A stretch of 64,000 bases of DNA, from NCBI RefSeq assembly GCF_000165425.1, contig NW_001799566.1, forward strand, positions 248,001 through 312,000, in the 5' to 3' direction. The notes beneath the pieces were generated by a model, which made no database searches, was not told the DNA's origin, and was given only the letters and a program-made list of their open reading frames with translations. The DNA is from Paramecium tetraurelia. Taxonomy: Eukaryota > Ciliophora > Oligohymenophorea > Peniculida > Parameciidae. Below are positions 1,936-25,951 of the stretch, in pieces (position 1 is the first letter of the stretch; every line of letters begins with the position of its first letter). Made by a program: the position numbers and the translations under genes.

Positions 1936-2252
1936 AAAAATTAAATGAGAATACAAAATATCAATTTCTTATGCATTTATTTCAATTTATTAAATGTTGT
2001 GGCTTTGATTAAGTAAAAAGTTTAGTTAGTATAGATGTGTTAATATTTTCAATAAATTTTGATATAAGCATCAATAATATCTTGTACTTTGTTAGAATTA
2101 AAAAAAAATCTTCATTTTATTATATTAATGATTACAGAGTATCAAACTTAATAAAGAACTAATAATAATATATTGATCTTGTTCTTTATGTAAATAATGA
2201 TCAAAAAATAAATTACAAATTGAATAATTATTAATAAACAAAAAAGTTTATA
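1936..2252. other. Intergenic, AT-rich
   Basis: No reading frame of interest. It lies 3' of the SECIS element and presumably holds the end of the selenoprotein W transcript. Confidence 0.5.
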
Positions 2253-2322
2253 ATCAAAATCATATCATTATCAGAGATCAATTTTAATGTATTTGAATTA
2301 ATCTCTTCATTTTAATTTCGAT
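2253..2322 (-). promoter_or_regulatory. SECIS element of the first selenoprotein W gene
   Basis: On the minus strand the core reads ATGA (2310-2307), an 11-bp stem AGAGATTAATT / AATTGATCTCT (one G-U pair), a 12-nt apical loop CAAATACATTAA, then GA (2272-2271). This is the eukaryotic SECIS layout: UGA/GA non-Watson-Crick quartet, ~11-bp helix II, unpaired As in the loop. A lower helix pairs ATCGAAAT (2322-2315) with ATTTTGAT (2260-2253). It begins 46 nt past the stop codon and would direct Sec insertion at the internal TGA of the gene just upstream. Confidence 0.88.
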
Positions 2323-2356
2323 CATTCCTTTTTATTTATCATATTTATATTGGATT

Positions 2357-2674
2357 TCATTTTTCAACAAATGCAATCAACTTCTCTAAGGCTTTTTAAG
2401 CTGATTAGTTATTGAAAGGTCCATCGCCATTCAATTTAGAATGAACCAATAAAGAAGTTCCATCATTTTTGGTGACTGTTATTTCCATTTCACCTGTAAC
2501 TTTTTCACTTGGTTTACCAGAGGCTTGGACTTTTGGATATAATTATTTTATATAGGAAGCAGCTAGGTTATATTATGGTTTGTATCCTCATCCTCCACAA
2601 TAAGTGATGTGAACTTTGAAGGTTAGGTCTTTATTTGTTGGCAAGGCAGCAATGTTTTCTGGAATTTTCTACAT
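2357..2674 (-). CDS. Selenoprotein W-like protein, TGA read as selenocysteine
   Basis: 105 residues from ATG at 2674. SelW/Rdx proteins are small thioredoxin-fold redox proteins with a CxxU active site after the first beta strand. Here KVHITYCGG-U-GYKPQYNLA matches that signature: Cys26, then TGA at 2590-2588 as residue 29, then GYK. The rest fits SelW (KPSEKVTGEMEITVTKNDG, LLVHSKLNGDGPF, QKALEKLIAFVEK) and ends at TGA 2359-2357. Reading the internal TGA as a stop would discard a clearly homologous 76-residue tail. A SECIS follows at 2253-2322. No intron. The gap to the upstream MORN gene is 43 nt. A paralogue lies at 25494-25845. Confidence 0.9.
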
Positions 2675-2717: not shown

Positions 2718-3716
2718 TCATTTTTTAATTTCTTTTATCAAAGTACCCATATTCCAAATTCCTTTTTTATACAGTTATCCATTTTTATAGATTTCGCCAT
2801 CTCCATTTTATCGACTTGATCTCCAATACCCAATGAAAACCTTTCCATCTGGATATGTCATTTATCCTTGGCCTTCGAATTCATCTTGTAAGAATTCTCC
2901 TTTGTACTCCTATCCAGTAGGCCAAATCATTGACCCTTGGCCTTCTTTGACTCCATCTCTCCATTCGCCGACATACTTCTTGCTATCATTCCAAAAGAAT
3001 GTCCCTTTATCTTAGATTAAAGGAATTACACATACTGTTAAAAGTGTCTCTAAGGAATTCTCCTTCATAATACGAGTTATCATTAAATATCATCTTGCCT
3101 TAGCCTTCTTTCGAGCCTCTCTTGAATTATCCTTGATAAGTGATGCCATTGGGCCATATTTCTTTGCCTTGACCTTGTTTTTCTCCATTATACCATTCGC
3201 CTTCATAATAAAAGGTAGAACTATACACACCGAACCCATTAAATAGATTGCTTTCAAATTCCCCTTCATAATAGTCTCCATCATGATATATCAATCTTCC
3301 AATGCCATAATATTGATCCTATTTAAAAAATCCTTCATAAAAACTTCCATCCAGATTCAAAACCTTGCCATAGCCATGTCTCATATCATCCAGCCAATCT
3401 CCAGAATACAGAGTCCCATTCTTTAATCTCTTAAGATGTATATAATTATTACATAACACCCCTTCTTATTTCCCATTAAGGCAGTCAAATCTTATGTTTT
3501 GAAATGAGGAGAGTCTTTAACAACAAGCTTTTTTAGCTTTTCCATAGTAGCCATGATTAATGGATTCAAAATAATAAATTACTCCTAAGTTTCATATACT
3601 CGAGGAGTGATAGCATTGATTAATTAATGAATACTCTCCTCAACACTCAAATGATCAGGCGTGTTATGGTTACTAAGATATGCGGGGGGATTTTAGTATG
3701 AGCAGCAATTACCCAT
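2718..3716 (-). CDS. MORN-repeat protein with acylation-type N terminus
   Basis: 316 residues. It begins MGNCCSYQ, a textbook N-myristoylation (Gly2) plus palmitoylation (Cys4, Cys5) signal, so it is probably membrane-anchored. After ~80 residues come about nine MORN repeats, each with a YxGxW/F core (TLYSGDWLDDMRHGYGK, YYEGEFESNLFNGFGVY, YVGEWRDGVKEGQGSM, EYKGEFLQDEFEGQGQ). MORN proteins bind phospholipid and organise cortical and membrane structures. Introns: 3430-3452 (23 nt) and 3011-3035 (25 nt), both ending AAG and both required to keep the repeats in frame. It ends KEIKK at TGA 2718. The exact partner or membrane is unknown. Confidence 0.88.
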
Positions 3717-5852: not shown

Positions 5853-8800
5853 TCAAATATTTTGGTACTCTTCAGTTCGAAAATATTACGCTTTTTGTTT
5901 GATTATCTACTTTAAATAATAAGATATACATCTGATCGAAGAGGATTAAATGATTAAGCTTATGAAGGTGATTTATTTGAATATTAGGATTCTTTAACTG
6001 CTGAACTGTAATTAGAGACATCAGATCTGTGTTAAACAGTGTTCACTATTGACTTAATTTTTTTAGAGTCCTCAAAATTAAAACCTGAAACCAATCCTGT
6101 TGCATTATTCGCAACATCTCCTGTCCTTTGTACTTCAAAGGTTTTTGAAACAAAATATGCATTGCTTGCATTATTTGAGCTTAATCTTTTTTGGGTTTTA
6201 GAGAGTTCATTCCTTAACATATTAATTTCTGATTCGTATTCTGTTGCCTAATCATTAATATATATATAATACTCTTTCAATTAATTTATCGTGTTTAAGT
6301 TAAATTTAATCCTTGAGCATCATTTACCTTTCAATTTCTGCATTCAAACCTTCAATTCTAGTCTCTAATTCAACAAGTTTTTAATTACTAAATAGATACA
6401 CAAATAATTTACTTTTATGTTTCTCTTATGATAATCTATTGTTTGCTTTATTGCTCTAAAATCGATTCATGCTCCATTCTTAATTGTCTGATTGTTGTTG
6501 ATAATTCTTGAACCATCTCATGCAATTATTCAATTTCAAGTTCTTTTTCTTATAACTAATTTAGTAAATCTCTAACTTTTGTTTCATTCTTCTTCTCATT
6601 TTCTAAATTTCTGATATGCGTTTATGATTGCTAAATGACTTCAATTTTCCTTTTAATTTCTAATTCTAATCGATTTAATTTTTCAAAATCTATAGATTAA
6701 TATCTATCTTAATAGTCCTGATTTTCACGATTTAATTATCTTATTTTTAGTTCAAGTTCATTATTTTTTGATTTATATTATGTTAATTCATTTTAACATT
6801 AAGGATACATCTTATTAACTCTATCTAATTCAGCTTTTATTGTATCTCTACTTTACTCTGTTGATTTTAATTACATTTTTATAGACTCAAATTCTCCAGA
6901 AGTAGTGCTAACTTCAGTTGACAATGCAATAAATTTCCTCTTCCATTATTCATTCTCTTCATTTTTACATCTCATTGATCTATAATTTTTTGATTTTCTT
7001 TCTGCAATAGTTCAATTTATTATTTGTATTCTTTAATTTCCCTATTTTTAGAGTTCTCCAAATATTGCAACTCTGATTTACATTACTCTATTACTAAGTT
7101 TAAATAATTGTTATCTCCTTCTTAAATTAGCTTTCTTGAATACTTATTCTTTCTTCATATTATTTCTTTTAAGTTTATATTTCTAATTTAAGCCTCTCTA
7201 TTAGTTTCTCATTTTATAACTACTCCTCCTTGTAATAATTCAATTTTCTTTCATATTCTGAATATCTTTCTCTTTCTTGTCTAAATTCCTCATTTCTTCT
7301 TTCCAACAACTTAATTTATTCGATAAATTCCTATTCCCTTCTTTCATATTAAAATTAAATTTATTTTGATTTTTGCCCTTCCTCTATTTTTATCTATATT
7401 GAAGTTAATTATTCTTAATATTCCTAATTAGACTTTTAAGTAGTCCTAAGTTATATCCTTAAGTTTTTTATTTCTTATTCCAACTCAAAGCTAGAGTTCT
7501 AATATTCTTTTAATTATTTTTCATAGATTTACACTTCATTTTACAATTAAAGCAGCTATCTTTCTAAATTTTAGATCTTAAATAAATCCTCTTACTTACT
7601 GACTTATACTGTTTCTTTTATTATTTGAACCTCTTGCTTTTATTTCTAAATAACAGTAAGATTATCTCTTAATGTAGATAATTGCTATTCCAATTACCTA
7701 ATACGATATTAATCCGCCTCTGAAGGCACTTCAATTGTCACGGTTTCTTTAATTACTTCTTATTTCTTTTAATTTAAGGAAAAGTAATCTTATTATAATG
7801 AACTAATTTATTATTCTAATTATCTAATTCTAATTCGATCAGATTCAACAGGGACTTCTACTACTTCCCTGACAATCTCAGCTTTTCTAGATTATAAAAC
7901 CTAATATTCACTTCTTATTTACGAAAGCTACATTTCTAATTATTGAATTTTGAATTTATCAGCCTAAGACGGTACTTCAATTGTATAAGTTTCTTTGATT
8001 ACTTCTTATTTAGTCTTATTTAATGCAATATAATCTTATTGTAATTTATTTAAGTCTTGTTCTAATTCAATGATTCTTCTTTTATCAGACTCCTTTGGAA
8101 CTTCAACCCTTTCTGTAATCACTTCTCGTATAGTCTCTTACTTCTTTTTAGATATTATTTATAACTCCATGGTCAAATTACTTAATTAGGATTCTAATTA
8201 TGCAATTCTTTATTTATCTGCAGGAGAAGAAACCTCAACCCTTTCAGTAATTACTTCTTTTATCACTTCCTACTTTTTCTTACTCACAATCTCATAATTA
8301 TTTTGTAAATTTAAATACTCCATCTTCATTTATTGCAATGACTACTCCAATTATTAAATTCTGTATTTATCTGCTTATGAAGACACCTCTACTGTTACAG
8401 TTTCCCTTATGACTTCTTATTTCTTCAAATTCAATTAATTATAATCTCTTTATAATTACGAAAACTGATCCTACAATTATCTTATTCTAATTTTATCTGA
8501 TTCCACAGGCACTTCCACTCTCTCTGTAATTATTTCCCTAATTACTTCCTGCTTCTATTATTAAATTATTAGTAATTCTGACTTTAATTACTAAACCTAT
8601 GATTCTAATTATTAGATTCTAAATTTGTCTGCCTATGAAGACACTTCTACAGTTACTGTTTCCTTAATAATTTATTGTTTCTTTTAATTAAGTTAGTAAT
8701 AGTCCTGAGTTAATCTTTGTAATTCCTATTCCAATTATTAAATTCTTAACTTATCTTTTTATGATGGGACTTCAACTGTTTCTGTTATGGTTTCTCTTAT

Positions 8801-11800
8801 TACTTCTTATTTTTATTGTTGTATTATTGATATATTTTACTTTAATTGAACCACTAATGACTCCAGCTATTATATTCTTAATTGATCTGATTATTAAGGA
8901 ACTTCTACTGTTATAGTTTCCTTTATTATCTCTTGCTTTTTTTAATTCAATAGATAATACTCTTGTTATATTTTTTATAATTAACTTTCCAATTATTAAA
9001 TTTTGATTCTATCAGATTCTAAAGGTACTTCAACTCTCTCTGTTATGTATTCAGTGATTATTTCTTATTTTTTTTAGGAAACTATTTGCAATTCTTTCTT
9101 AATTTACAATAACTAAGATTCTAAAAGTTAAATTCTTGATTTATCAGCTTAAGAGGGAACTTCAACAGTAATGGTTTCTTTGATAATTTCTTATTTTTTC
9201 AATTCTAAGTATTAATAGTCCTTTTGTAGACGCTAAAGCTGGGTTTATAATTATTAGATCTTTAATTTATCAGATTCTGAAGGGACCTCAACTCTTTCAG
9301 TAATTATTTCTCTTATAACTTCCTATTTACTTTTAGAGACGAATTCCAATTATGTCTTTAATTTGACTATCTCAGATTCTAATTATTAGATTATTTATCT
9401 ATCAGCTTAGGATGGTACTTCAACAGTGATTTGCTGTGTTATAACTTCTTATTTTCTTTAATTTAATAAATAGATCTCTTATCTTAAATTATTTACTTAT
9501 ATTTCCAATTATTAAATTCTAATTTTATCTGCTTCTACAGGAACTTCAACAGTTTGAGTTATAAATTCTCGAATAATTTCTTATTTTTTTGCTGATGATT
9601 GTTTAACCTAATGTTCTAGTTCTTAGATTCTCAACTTATCACTTTCTGATTATTACACTTCTCTTATAGTTTCTACAACAACTTAATTCTTTCGTCTATC
9701 TAATTCATAGTATTTAGTTTTCCACAATTATAATTCCTCCTCTAAATTAGCGATCAATTTAATATCTTCTTGACTTCTGACTTAAACTGTTTCCCTAATA
9801 GTTTCTCTAATAACTTCCTATTTAGATGCTGACACTTATTGAGATTGTAATTTTAATAGAGATACTTGTTATTCCAATTCTTATATTTTTAATTTTTCTT
9901 ATTTTGAAGGAGTTTCAATTATTTATTTAACTATCTCAGGTTTCCTTTTGAGAAGTACATCATTAGAGGCCTTTAATTCTGTAATTTTCTATTTATCTAG
10001 TTCCCACTCACTTTTTAATAAATTAAATTCGTTTCTTTTATCTAATAATTATTTTTCTAAATCTCGGCACTTCGATTTCAAAGTCTCAATATCCAATTCT
10101 AATTACCTAACCTTTCTAGATTGATCTTGATTCTATTTGATATTCTCTATAGTTACAGAGTAAGTTGAGATTTACTCCTTATAGGTTTCTTCTCTGATTT
10201 GTAGAACACGGACTTCTTCTTATAATTCAATTAATTGTAACTCTAATTATTGAATTCTATGTTTATCTTATTCGGTCTAAGTGAGAATATAGGTGTGAGA
10301 TTCATATTAGGTCTTAACATCAATCAACAATTATCTAGCTTCTTGATGTTGCAATTATTCATGATAGAATTTCTCTTTCCATAGTTTGACTTAGACTTCC
10401 ATCTCATTATACAATTATTCAATTTATCTGAATTCTCTTCTTAACTTTTCAATTTCCTTTTAATGATTTTCAGCTTCGTATTAATATTAAGTATACGATT
10501 AAATCTCAATTCGTTTTTCTTATTGTTACACAATCATTTATTCTTATAATTGTTTAATTTCAACCTTATAATTGTTGATTTATTAATTCAATTAATTAAC
10601 TTACGTTTTATATCTATCCAATTCTACAGTACTTTTACTTTATTTTTCTAATTAAGTGATACTCAATCTATATCCATTATTTTATTCTTAAATTGATTTG
10701 AATTCAGTGACTAATATGTCCAATTCCTCCTTTACACGTTCATTTTCTATTCTTAAATGATTGTTCTGATCTTCTAATTATTTGATTCTTAACCTGTGAG
10801 TCTCACTATCCTTGGTTTTAATTTCTAATTATATATATTTTTATTTCCAATTTTCTAATTCATTCTATATTGTATGAACTTGCCAACTATCCCTTTGTAT
10901 TCTTTCATTTTATTGAAGTTCTATTTGTTTTTTGGTCTCATTGACTCTAATTTCCATTTAGATGATTCTCCTCTCACTTTCTTCTTTTTGTAATTCAAAC
11001 ACTTGACATTTCTCCTGCCATTGTTTACATTAAGTTTAATAGAAATTGACCTCTTATCTTAGTTGATCAATCTCATATTACATGTTACCTTTCGACTCTG
11101 CCATAGCTGACTCCAATTTAAATTGATTCTAGTTATGTGCCTCTATTAATATTTGAATATCATTATCCATCTCTTTAATTTTGTCCTTTAAGGTTTAAAT
11201 TGTTCTCTCGTAAAATTCCTTATCTGATGTTCTTACTTAAGCCTCAGATTAATGCCTGGCTAATTCCTACATCAGTCTAGTAATTTCACTTTAGGTAGTA
11301 GAATTCCTCTATTCCTTAACAGATCTGATCTCTAATTCCAAGGTAGACGCCCTATTTTTATAAGTCTATATATCTTGTTCATATTTGCTTTTTATCCTCA
11401 AATACTCTTCTACTTGCTTTCTCTGCTCTGTTAACAAGGCATTGAGTTGAGTAATCTCTAAAATGATTAGAACTGATATGGAATACCCTATTAAGATTTG
11501 ATCTATTGTTGAGTCATTGAAGAAATGTCTTATTTGTATCTGGCAACTAGACTAGATGATTCAGCATCTGAAGAATTTCTCATTAACAATTAAGAGCGCA
11601 ATTTTGCCAATTCTTACTGAGCTGCTTCCAGTTCAGCTTGGTTAATCATGTACTTCTGCTTTAGATTATAATTTTCTCCTGACATTTGCTTTAATTATTA
11701 ATTGTCCTTGTCCAATTGTTCGATCACTTCTTTCAATTTTCTATTGTCCTGCAGCAGTTCCTCATAACGTCTATGAATAGGATGAGTTATTTACTTGTCT

Positions 11801-25493: not shown

Positions 25494-25845
25494 ATGCGTA
25501 AATTCTTCACTCAAATTCCTAAAGCTGTTGAATTATTGAAAGCAAACCCTGCCCTGCCAGTTAGAGCTCATATTGAATACTGTTCAGGATGAGGATATCG
25601 TTCATAAGCTATTTTAGCTGAAGTGTGCTTGAAGCATCTCTATCCAAAAAGTGAAGTCACTTTAAATTCACCGGATTCAGTATCATTATTTGACTATTCA
25701 TTAGAGAACAGGAAATATTGAAGTGACCATTTTTAAATCAGATGGATAAAAAGAATTGGTCCATTCTAAAAAAAGTGGCCAAGGAAATATCACACCTGAT
25801 AATGTGGCTGAAATCATGTAAAGAGTGATCAAGTTTGTTGAATGA
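25494..25845 (+). CDS. Selenoprotein W-like protein (second copy), TGA read as Sec
   Basis: 108 residues from MRKFFTQIPKAVELLKANPA. The redox motif is HIEYCSG-U-GYRSQAILAE: Cys30, TGA at 25590-25592 as residue 33, then GYRS, as in SelW/Rdx. A 25-nt intron follows SPDS; the second exon gives TGNIEVTIFKSDGQKELVHS and ends IMQRVIKFVE, collinear with the paralogue at 2357-2674 (EITVTKNDG, LVHSK, KLIAFVEK). Its stop is 25843-25845 and a SECIS begins 29 nt later. The conserved protein on both sides of the internal TGA, plus the SECIS, makes Sec insertion the best reading. Confidence 0.9.
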
Positions 25846-25873: not shown

Positions 25874-25951
25874 TTAAAGAGATAAAATGAATGAAGAATT
25901 GGAAAGAAAATACGGATTCCAATTTTGAAAAAGGAATTTTAATCTGTTTAA
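25874..25951 (+). promoter_or_regulatory. SECIS element of the second selenoprotein W gene
   Basis: Core: ATGA (25891-25894), 10-bp stem AGAATTGGAA / TTCCAATTTT with one G-U pair, 12-nt loop AGAAAATACGGA, then GA (25927-25928). Lower helix: TTAAAGAGAT (25874-25883) with ATCTGTTTAA (25942-25951), one mismatch. The quartet starts 46 nt after the stop codon, the same spacing as in the first gene, and both loops are 12 nt with AAATAC in common. Confidence 0.88.

What the first reader, a model, noticed from the sequence alone, without database searches (positions are those of the whole stretch)
2357..2674. Selenoprotein W in a genome whose only stop is TGA (copy 1)
The sequence shows YCGG-TGA-GYKPQY in frame with strong SelW similarity on both sides, and a second TGA ends the gene. 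With TAA and TAG reassigned to Gln, TGA must mean both stop and Sec, so the SECIS is the sole discriminator. Known: SelW/Rdx has a CxxU site. Inferred: TGA at 2590-2588 is Sec.
Basis: partly seen in the sequence, partly recalled or inferred. Interest (0 to 1): 0.85.

Follow-up and report, generated by a model that had tools for sequence, protein, structure and literature searches.

The report
Selenoprotein W in a ciliate
[quoted passage not shown] the signal and machinery for this are present, so it is a well-supported new example of a known arrangement, and related genes in the genome hint at how the cell tells the two UGAs apart.

Summary
Confirmed. Minus strand 2674-2357 encodes a 105-residue selenoprotein W with in-frame UGA (2590-2588) at the CxxU site and a second UGA as terminator. 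The genome search gave six SelW loci: five intact, each with UGA at that site (one more in this window, 25494-25845, +), and one broken. Two SelT and three thioredoxin reductase (TrxR) genes also have UGA at the Sec site. tRNA-Sec(UCA), eEFSec, SepSecS, SelD and an SBP2-like gene are present. Purifying selection continues past the UGA (dN/dS 0.05 between two copies).

Sec genes in a UGA-only ciliate are known (Tetrahymena), so this is a new member. 'SECIS is the sole discriminator' is too strong: both UGAs precede the same SECIS. In SelW/SelT the stop UGA is 25-49 nt from the SECIS; in TrxR the Sec and stop UGAs are one codon apart, both over 100 nt away. All three TrxR genes carry a strong hairpin 6-9 nt after the Sec UGA, spaced like the SREs of SelN and SelS: the best lead. 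Nothing was tested on RNA or protein.

The parts
2357..2674 (-). SelW gene, 105 residues plus stop, no intron seen
2588..2590 (-). in-frame TGA read as selenocysteine (CGGU)
   Evidence: same codon at the aligned site in 5 of 5 intact SelW copies
2357..2359 (-). terminal TGA (stop), 46 nt before the SECIS quartet
2270..2310 (-). SECIS core: AUGA quartet, 11-bp helix II, apical loop with AAA, UGAU
2250..2325 (-). SECIS with its lower helix I (13 bp), -18 kcal/mol
25494..25845 (+). second SelW gene in the window, with intron 25680-25704
25590..25592 (+). in-frame TGA read as selenocysteine in the second SelW
25843..25845 (+). terminal TGA of the second SelW, 45 nt before its SECIS quartet
25891..25929 (+). 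SECIS core of the second SelW

Best explanation
The locus is a functional selenoprotein W gene of a ciliate (Paramecium-like by inference). UGA at 2590-2588 is decoded as selenocysteine by tRNA-Sec(UCA) and eEFSec, recruited through an SBP2-like protein to a type-I-like SECIS in the 3'UTR (core 2310-2270). The second UGA terminates. Which UGA is Sec must come from position or local context: here the Sec UGA is 277 nt and the stop UGA 46 nt upstream of the SECIS. Shown: sequence, paralog conservation, SECIS pairing with covariation, machinery genes. Inferred: actual Sec insertion, and the role of position.
For: Homology to SelW on both sides of the UGA. Five intact SelW copies, 5 of 5 with UGA at the site and none with TGY. 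dN/dS after the UGA 0.05 (dS 1.40, 75 codons) between the C182 and C203 copies. SECIS helix II over five copies: 91.1% of cells paired, double changes in 5 of 9 pairs, 0 of 500 shuffles reach the covariation score, slid registers 0.27 or less against 0.66. A core rule (ATGA, AA in the loop, TGA, 10 or more of 11 pairs) finds 9 of 10 selenoprotein 3'UTRs; among 1,197 control ORF ends the one hit is this gene's own element, seen from another frame. The one broken SelW copy (C165) has a frame-breaking deletion and has lost the SECIS TGA (TAA). Machinery. Also SelT x2 and TrxR x3 with UGA at the Sec site.
Against: Rfam has no SECIS match here even at E<=10, nor at E<=5 in nine loci with the SelW and SelT genes and tRNA-Sec. 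The covariance model does not separate the SelT elements from background (20.7 and 19.0 bits; best unrelated window hit 21.0), and the TrxR element of L066 is weak (17.1 bits). The core rule was set on these same ten elements. Between this gene and its closest copy (C42) silent sites after the UGA are saturated, so dN/dS there is not measurable. The SBP2-like gene is a weak match (24.6 bits to solved SBP2); SelD and eEFSec pieces score under their family cut-offs. No RNA or protein data.
Confidence: 0.95

Rival explanations
1. UGA is read as an ordinary amino acid (Cys or Trp) by a near-cognate tRNA, as UGA=Cys in Euplotes; the SECIS is a relic.
For: Ciliates often change stop meanings, and SECIS-like elements are reported at GPx genes without Sec in other ciliates (PMC7409322, passages).
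Against: Long frames in this genome hold many TAA/TAG but no TGA: the SepSecS match has 15 TAA/TAG and no TGA, the two eEFSec matches 15 each and no TGA, five other Rdx-type matches none. A Sec machinery exists; the SECIS covaries; the only copy with a damaged SECIS quartet is a broken gene.
Confidence: 0.03
2. The UGA is a true premature stop and the gene is a pseudogene, or makes a 28-residue peptide.
For: UGA is the stop of this code; no transcript data.
Against: Five paralogs share the UGA and stay open for about 75 codons after it; dN/dS 0.05 after the UGA between two copies. A real pseudogene of the family (C165) looks different: frame broken and SECIS core lost.
Confidence: 0.01
3. A short intron removes the UGA.
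For: Introns of 22-26 nt are read in four SelW paralogs.
Against: Only two GT..AG spans of 15-45 nt cover the UGA: 28 nt (frame lost) and 36 nt (starts GTGG, deletes the whole active-site motif).
Confidence: 0.01
4. On the stop/Sec choice: stop reading is set by closeness to the mRNA 3' end rather than by distance to the SECIS (the Condylostoma model).
For: Proposed for other ciliates with ambiguous stops (PMC4967479, passages). SelW and SelT stops lie 25-49 nt before the SECIS, hence perhaps fairly near the mRNA end, which is not known here.
Against: In TrxR the stop UGA is one codon after the Sec UGA and 106-126 nt before the SECIS quartet, so its mRNA end must be about 150 nt or more away.
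Confidence: 0.4

Closest known systems
Selenoprotein W / Rdx family (PF10262)
   Same: CxxU site, fold and sequence; best solved match mouse SelW 2npb
   Different: About 18 more residues before the part that matches mouse SelW; both Sec and stop are UGA
Tetrahymena thermophila selenoproteins (2 GPx, 3 TrxR, SPS2)
   Same: UGA is the only stop and also Sec; 3'UTR SECIS (PMC2612030, passages)
   Different: SelW and SelT are not among the six listed there; SelD here has Cys (GCGCKVP), not Sec
Euplotes crassus SelW and TrxR
   Same: Ciliate selenoproteins; Sec insertion into the TrxR depends on UGA position (PMC3737529, passages)
   Different: There UGA means Cys and Sec and is not used as stop
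Selenocysteine redefinition elements of SelN (6 nt after UGA) and SelS stem-loop 1 (9 nt after UGA, three nt into the 3'UTR)
   Same: The TrxR hairpins in this genome start 6, 6 and 9 nt after the Sec UGA (PMC3628699, passages)
   Different: Here a UGA stop lies between the Sec UGA and the hairpin; no activity tested

Membership tests
Selenoprotein W (Rdx family) | Rdx profile match above cut-off | tested here: met
   41.6 bits against cut-off 22.6
Selenoprotein W (Rdx family) | CxxU redox site after strand 1 | tested here: met
   CGGU at residues 26-29, between E20-26 and H32-45
Selenoprotein W (Rdx family) | Thioredoxin-like SelW fold | tested here: met
   Foldseek best hit mouse SelW, E 3.5e-5, TM 0.60/0.70, for a model with Cys in place of Sec
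Eukaryotic selenoprotein gene | In-frame UGA with coding constraint downstream | tested here: met
   dN/dS 0.05 between C182 and C203 copies; not measurable between this gene and C42
Eukaryotic selenoprotein gene | SECIS in the 3'UTR with AUGA/UGA quartet, helix II and AA in the apical loop | tested here: met
Eukaryotic selenoprotein gene | Match to Rfam SECIS families | tested here: not met
   no match at E<=10 for this gene nor at E<=5 for the other SelW and SelT loci; TrxR loci not scanned. Not taken as a defining feature of the gene class, but told as a result against
Eukaryotic selenoprotein gene | Sec machinery in the genome | tested here: met
   SBP2-like weakest; PSTK not told apart from KTI12
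Eukaryotic selenoprotein gene | Sec present in the protein | not testable with these tools
   needs 75Se or mass spectrometry
SRE (TrxR genes, outside the window) | Stable stem-loop about 6-9 nt after the Sec UGA | tested here: met
   3 of 3 TrxR genes found; 36-nt folds -21.9, -22.5, -15.1 against a minimum of -11.8 in 2,803 control ORF ends
SRE (TrxR genes, outside the window) | Stimulates Sec insertion | not testable with these tools
   needs a reporter

The most novel reading that the evidence does not exclude
In this UGA-only ciliate the meaning of each UGA in a selenoprotein mRNA is set by its place, with two layouts. In SelW and SelT the stop UGA is parked 25-49 nt before the SECIS, too close to be recoded, while the Sec UGA is 273-427 nt away. 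In TrxR, where Sec and stop UGAs are one codon apart and both over 100 nt from the SECIS, a strong hairpin starting 6-9 nt after the Sec UGA (0-3 nt after the stop) marks the first UGA for Sec and is already partly opened when the second is reached.
Probability: 0.3. Interest if true: 0.7.

Novelty: new member of a known kind. Interest (0 to 1): 0.45.

Why it matters
Where UGA is the only stop, every selenoprotein mRNA carries at least two UGAs with opposite meanings before its SECIS. That is a clean natural setting for the open question of how ribosomes choose. The genome offers built-in contrasts: SelW with the two UGAs 228-231 nt apart in the mRNA, TrxR with them one codon apart plus a hairpin, and a SelW pseudogene that has lost part of its SECIS quartet. 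Practically, annotation with code 6 alone would cut these genes short.

Tried and rejected
Distance rule as the general answer: SelW/SelT stops lie under the reported 51-nt minimum (PMC3737529, passages), but TrxR stops lie 106-126 nt away. A figure legend of another ciliate study says that TrxR Sec codons lie shortly before the SECIS, against that minimum (PMC4967479). So it is kept only as a partial idea.

Local structure after the Sec UGA in SelW and SelT: none clear (z -1.7 to +1.2, 7 genes). Base after the UGA: Sec UGA is followed by G in 5 of 5 SelW and T in 2 of 2 SelT, stop UGA by A in 6 of 7; in TrxR the Sec UGA is followed by G and the stops by A, G, G, so this base alone does not decide.

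Homolog search of 5.8 billion proteins: two candidates, none at E<=0.001. L7Ae profile for SBP2: 30 matches, 24 of which I read; by eye these are ribosomal, NHP2- or Snu13-like, and the C17 gene was not among the 30. A recalled SBP2 stretch then found C17 as its one match. Pattern for TrxR tails: 6 hits against 1 for the reversed control; three (L067-L069) dropped because the sequence before them is not TrxR-like. GPx family: nine matches, not followed for Sec. One search used a pairing register one base off and is replaced.

Full report
What is there. On the minus strand at 2674-2357 a 105-residue ORF reads through a TGA at 2590-2588 in the context YCGG-UGA-GYKPQY and ends at a second TGA. 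The protein is a selenoprotein W: Rdx profile 1.4e-10, best solved relative mouse SelW, and a confident model (pLDDT 88.9, five-row alignment, Cys in place of Sec) whose best structural match is the same mouse SelW. The window lies in a 69-Mb assembly of 231 contigs. TAA/TAG read as Gln, 22-34% GC in 2-kb steps and introns of 22-26 nt point to a Paramecium-like ciliate; that name is inference, no call gave it.

The SECIS. It starts 46 nt after the stop: AUGA, an 11-bp helix, a loop with AAA, UGAU (core 2310-2270), on a 13-bp lower helix. Equivalent elements follow all five intact SelW genes. On these five the helix has 91.1% of cells paired, double changes in 5 of 9 pairs, and a covariation score that none of 500 shuffles reach. 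With a simple core rule, 10 of 10 intact selenoprotein genes pass at 8 or more pairs and 9 of 10 at 10 or more. Of 1,197 control ORF ends (14 loci that hold the selenoprotein genes or overlap them left out, the window kept in), 5 pass at 8 or more, two of them the same element and one this gene's own, seen from another frame; 1 passes at 10 or more, again this gene's own. The rule was written after seeing the ten, and the control ORF ends are mechanical, mostly not genes. Against: Rfam finds no SECIS at E<=10, and the covariance model leaves SelT within background and one TrxR weak; the two other TrxR elements lead their list at 28.2 and 27.1 bits.

The family in the genome. A protein search gave nine matches in six loci, each with one in-frame TGA in the piece that holds the site. 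Five are intact: this gene, C42, C182, C203 and window 25494-25845 (+). All five have UGA at the aligned site and UGA as stop. Between C182 and C203, dN/dS is 0.06 before and 0.05 after the UGA, with dS 1.40 after it. The other nine pairs are far more diverged: after the UGA two are saturated at silent sites (this gene with C42, and with C203) and seven give 0.32-0.68, so they say little more than that the frame is kept. The sixth locus, on C165, has a frame-breaking deletion against C42, and its SECIS TGA reads TAA.

Machinery. tRNA-Sec 64.3 bits over a cut-off of 47, the only one of 16 matches over it, anticodon TCA. eEFSec in two copies, each under the bacterial-type profile's cut-off; the exon of one matches solved human eEFSec at 6e-71, 242 bits against 97 for the best EF-Tu among the 60 of 112 rows shown. 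SepSecS matches the human enzyme at 4e-108. SelD lies on one contig in two pieces, each under the family cut-off, and carries Cys (GCGCKVP) at the catalytic site. An SBP2-like gene on C17 was found with a recalled SBP2 stretch (1.8e-5); its best solved match is SBP2 itself, at only 2.2e-4. Two KTI12/PSTK-family loci were not told apart.

Other selenoproteins. SelT on C224 and C6, with YCTSUSYK. TrxR on C14, C24 and C200, with the tail EGCUG and then UGA. The upstream exon of the C14 gene matches solved TrxRs (7.7e-119); that of C24 reads alike by eye; C200 rests on its tail and its likeness to C14.

How the two UGAs may be told apart. Distances from the end of the terminal UGA to the SECIS AUGA: SelW 46, 44, 49, 49, 45; SelT 25, 31; TrxR 126, 126 and 112, or 106 if the earlier of two overlapping elements of the C24 gene is taken. 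Distances from the Sec UGA: SelW 277, 275, 301, 299, 298 on the DNA, which is 273-277 in the mRNA once the introns of three copies are taken out (lengths); SelT 418 and 427; TrxR 132, 132, 118 (terminal distance plus 6). So the SECIS sits close to the stop where Sec is far upstream and further out where Sec is the penultimate residue. That fits a minimum distance for recoding, reported as 51 nt (PMC3737529, passages); a figure legend in PMC4967479 says that TrxR of two other ciliates goes against it. Distance cannot separate the two TrxR UGAs, which are one codon apart.

The TrxR hairpin. Directly after the TrxR stop there is a strong hairpin in 3 of 3 genes found, starting 0, 0 and 3 nt after the stop, that is 6, 6 and 9 nt after the Sec UGA. 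Fold energies of 45-nt stretches are -22.3, -22.3 and -15.1 kcal/mol with z -4.7, -5.0 and -3.6, and no shuffle of 200 folds as well. Over 36 nt after the stop they give -21.9, -22.5 and -15.1 against a minimum of -11.8 in 2,803 control ORF ends, again mechanical ones. C14 and C200 differ at two stem positions, both keeping a pair through G-U, and at three loop positions. By eye C24 and C200 share a CCCUAGC/GCUAGGG stem (C14 has one G-U in it), and next to it a C-G pair is U-A in C24. The 3'UTRs of C14 and C200 are alike for some 210 nt, so these two are not independent. SelS stem-loop 1 (9 nt after its UGA, shown to promote Sec insertion) and the SelN SRE (6 nt) have the same spacing (PMC3628699, passages). 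I infer that it works like an SRE; function is untested. No clear hairpin follows the Sec UGA in SelW or SelT.

Known or new. In Tetrahymena UGA is the only stop and also Sec (PMC2612030 and PMC7409322, passages), and a ciliate SelW selenoprotein is known from Euplotes (PMC3737529, passages), where UGA is not a stop. I saw no paper on Sec-type SelW or SelT genes in Paramecium, or on a TrxR hairpin in ciliates, in the listings of searches of the open-access library; others listed only part of their papers (39 of 40, 12 of 21, 15 of 333, 10 of 17), and subscription papers are mostly not held. The finding is therefore a well-supported new member of a known kind, with the stop/Sec layout as the lead worth following.

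Noticed in passing
L065:1516-1542 (+), L070:1516-1542 (+), L066:1474-1497 (-): Strong GC-rich hairpin right after the stop of three TrxR genes (Gly-Cys-Sec-Gly-stop), more stable than after any of 2,803 control ORF ends.
   Followed up: yes
L020 (contig C165, about 455650-455900, -): SelW pseudogene: a deletion breaks the frame against the C42 copy and the SECIS TGA reads TAA.
   Followed up: partly
L034/L035 (contig C162): SelD-like gene with Cys instead of Sec; a run of N sits inside the gene, with a garbled near-duplicate of the downstream coding stretch before it, which looks like an assembly fault.
   Followed up: no
window 6959-11272 (-): A 1437-residue ORF that looks like a coiled coil, with many repeats like ETITVEVPSQADK.RIQQLE.
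   Followed up: no
window 2718-3716 (-): MORN-like repeat gene (by eye) on the same strand ends about 44 nt before the SelW start.
   Followed up: no
L072-L077 (contigs C156, C157, C177): GPx-family matches with TGA in the later pieces; not checked for Sec, intron or frame effects.
   Followed up: no
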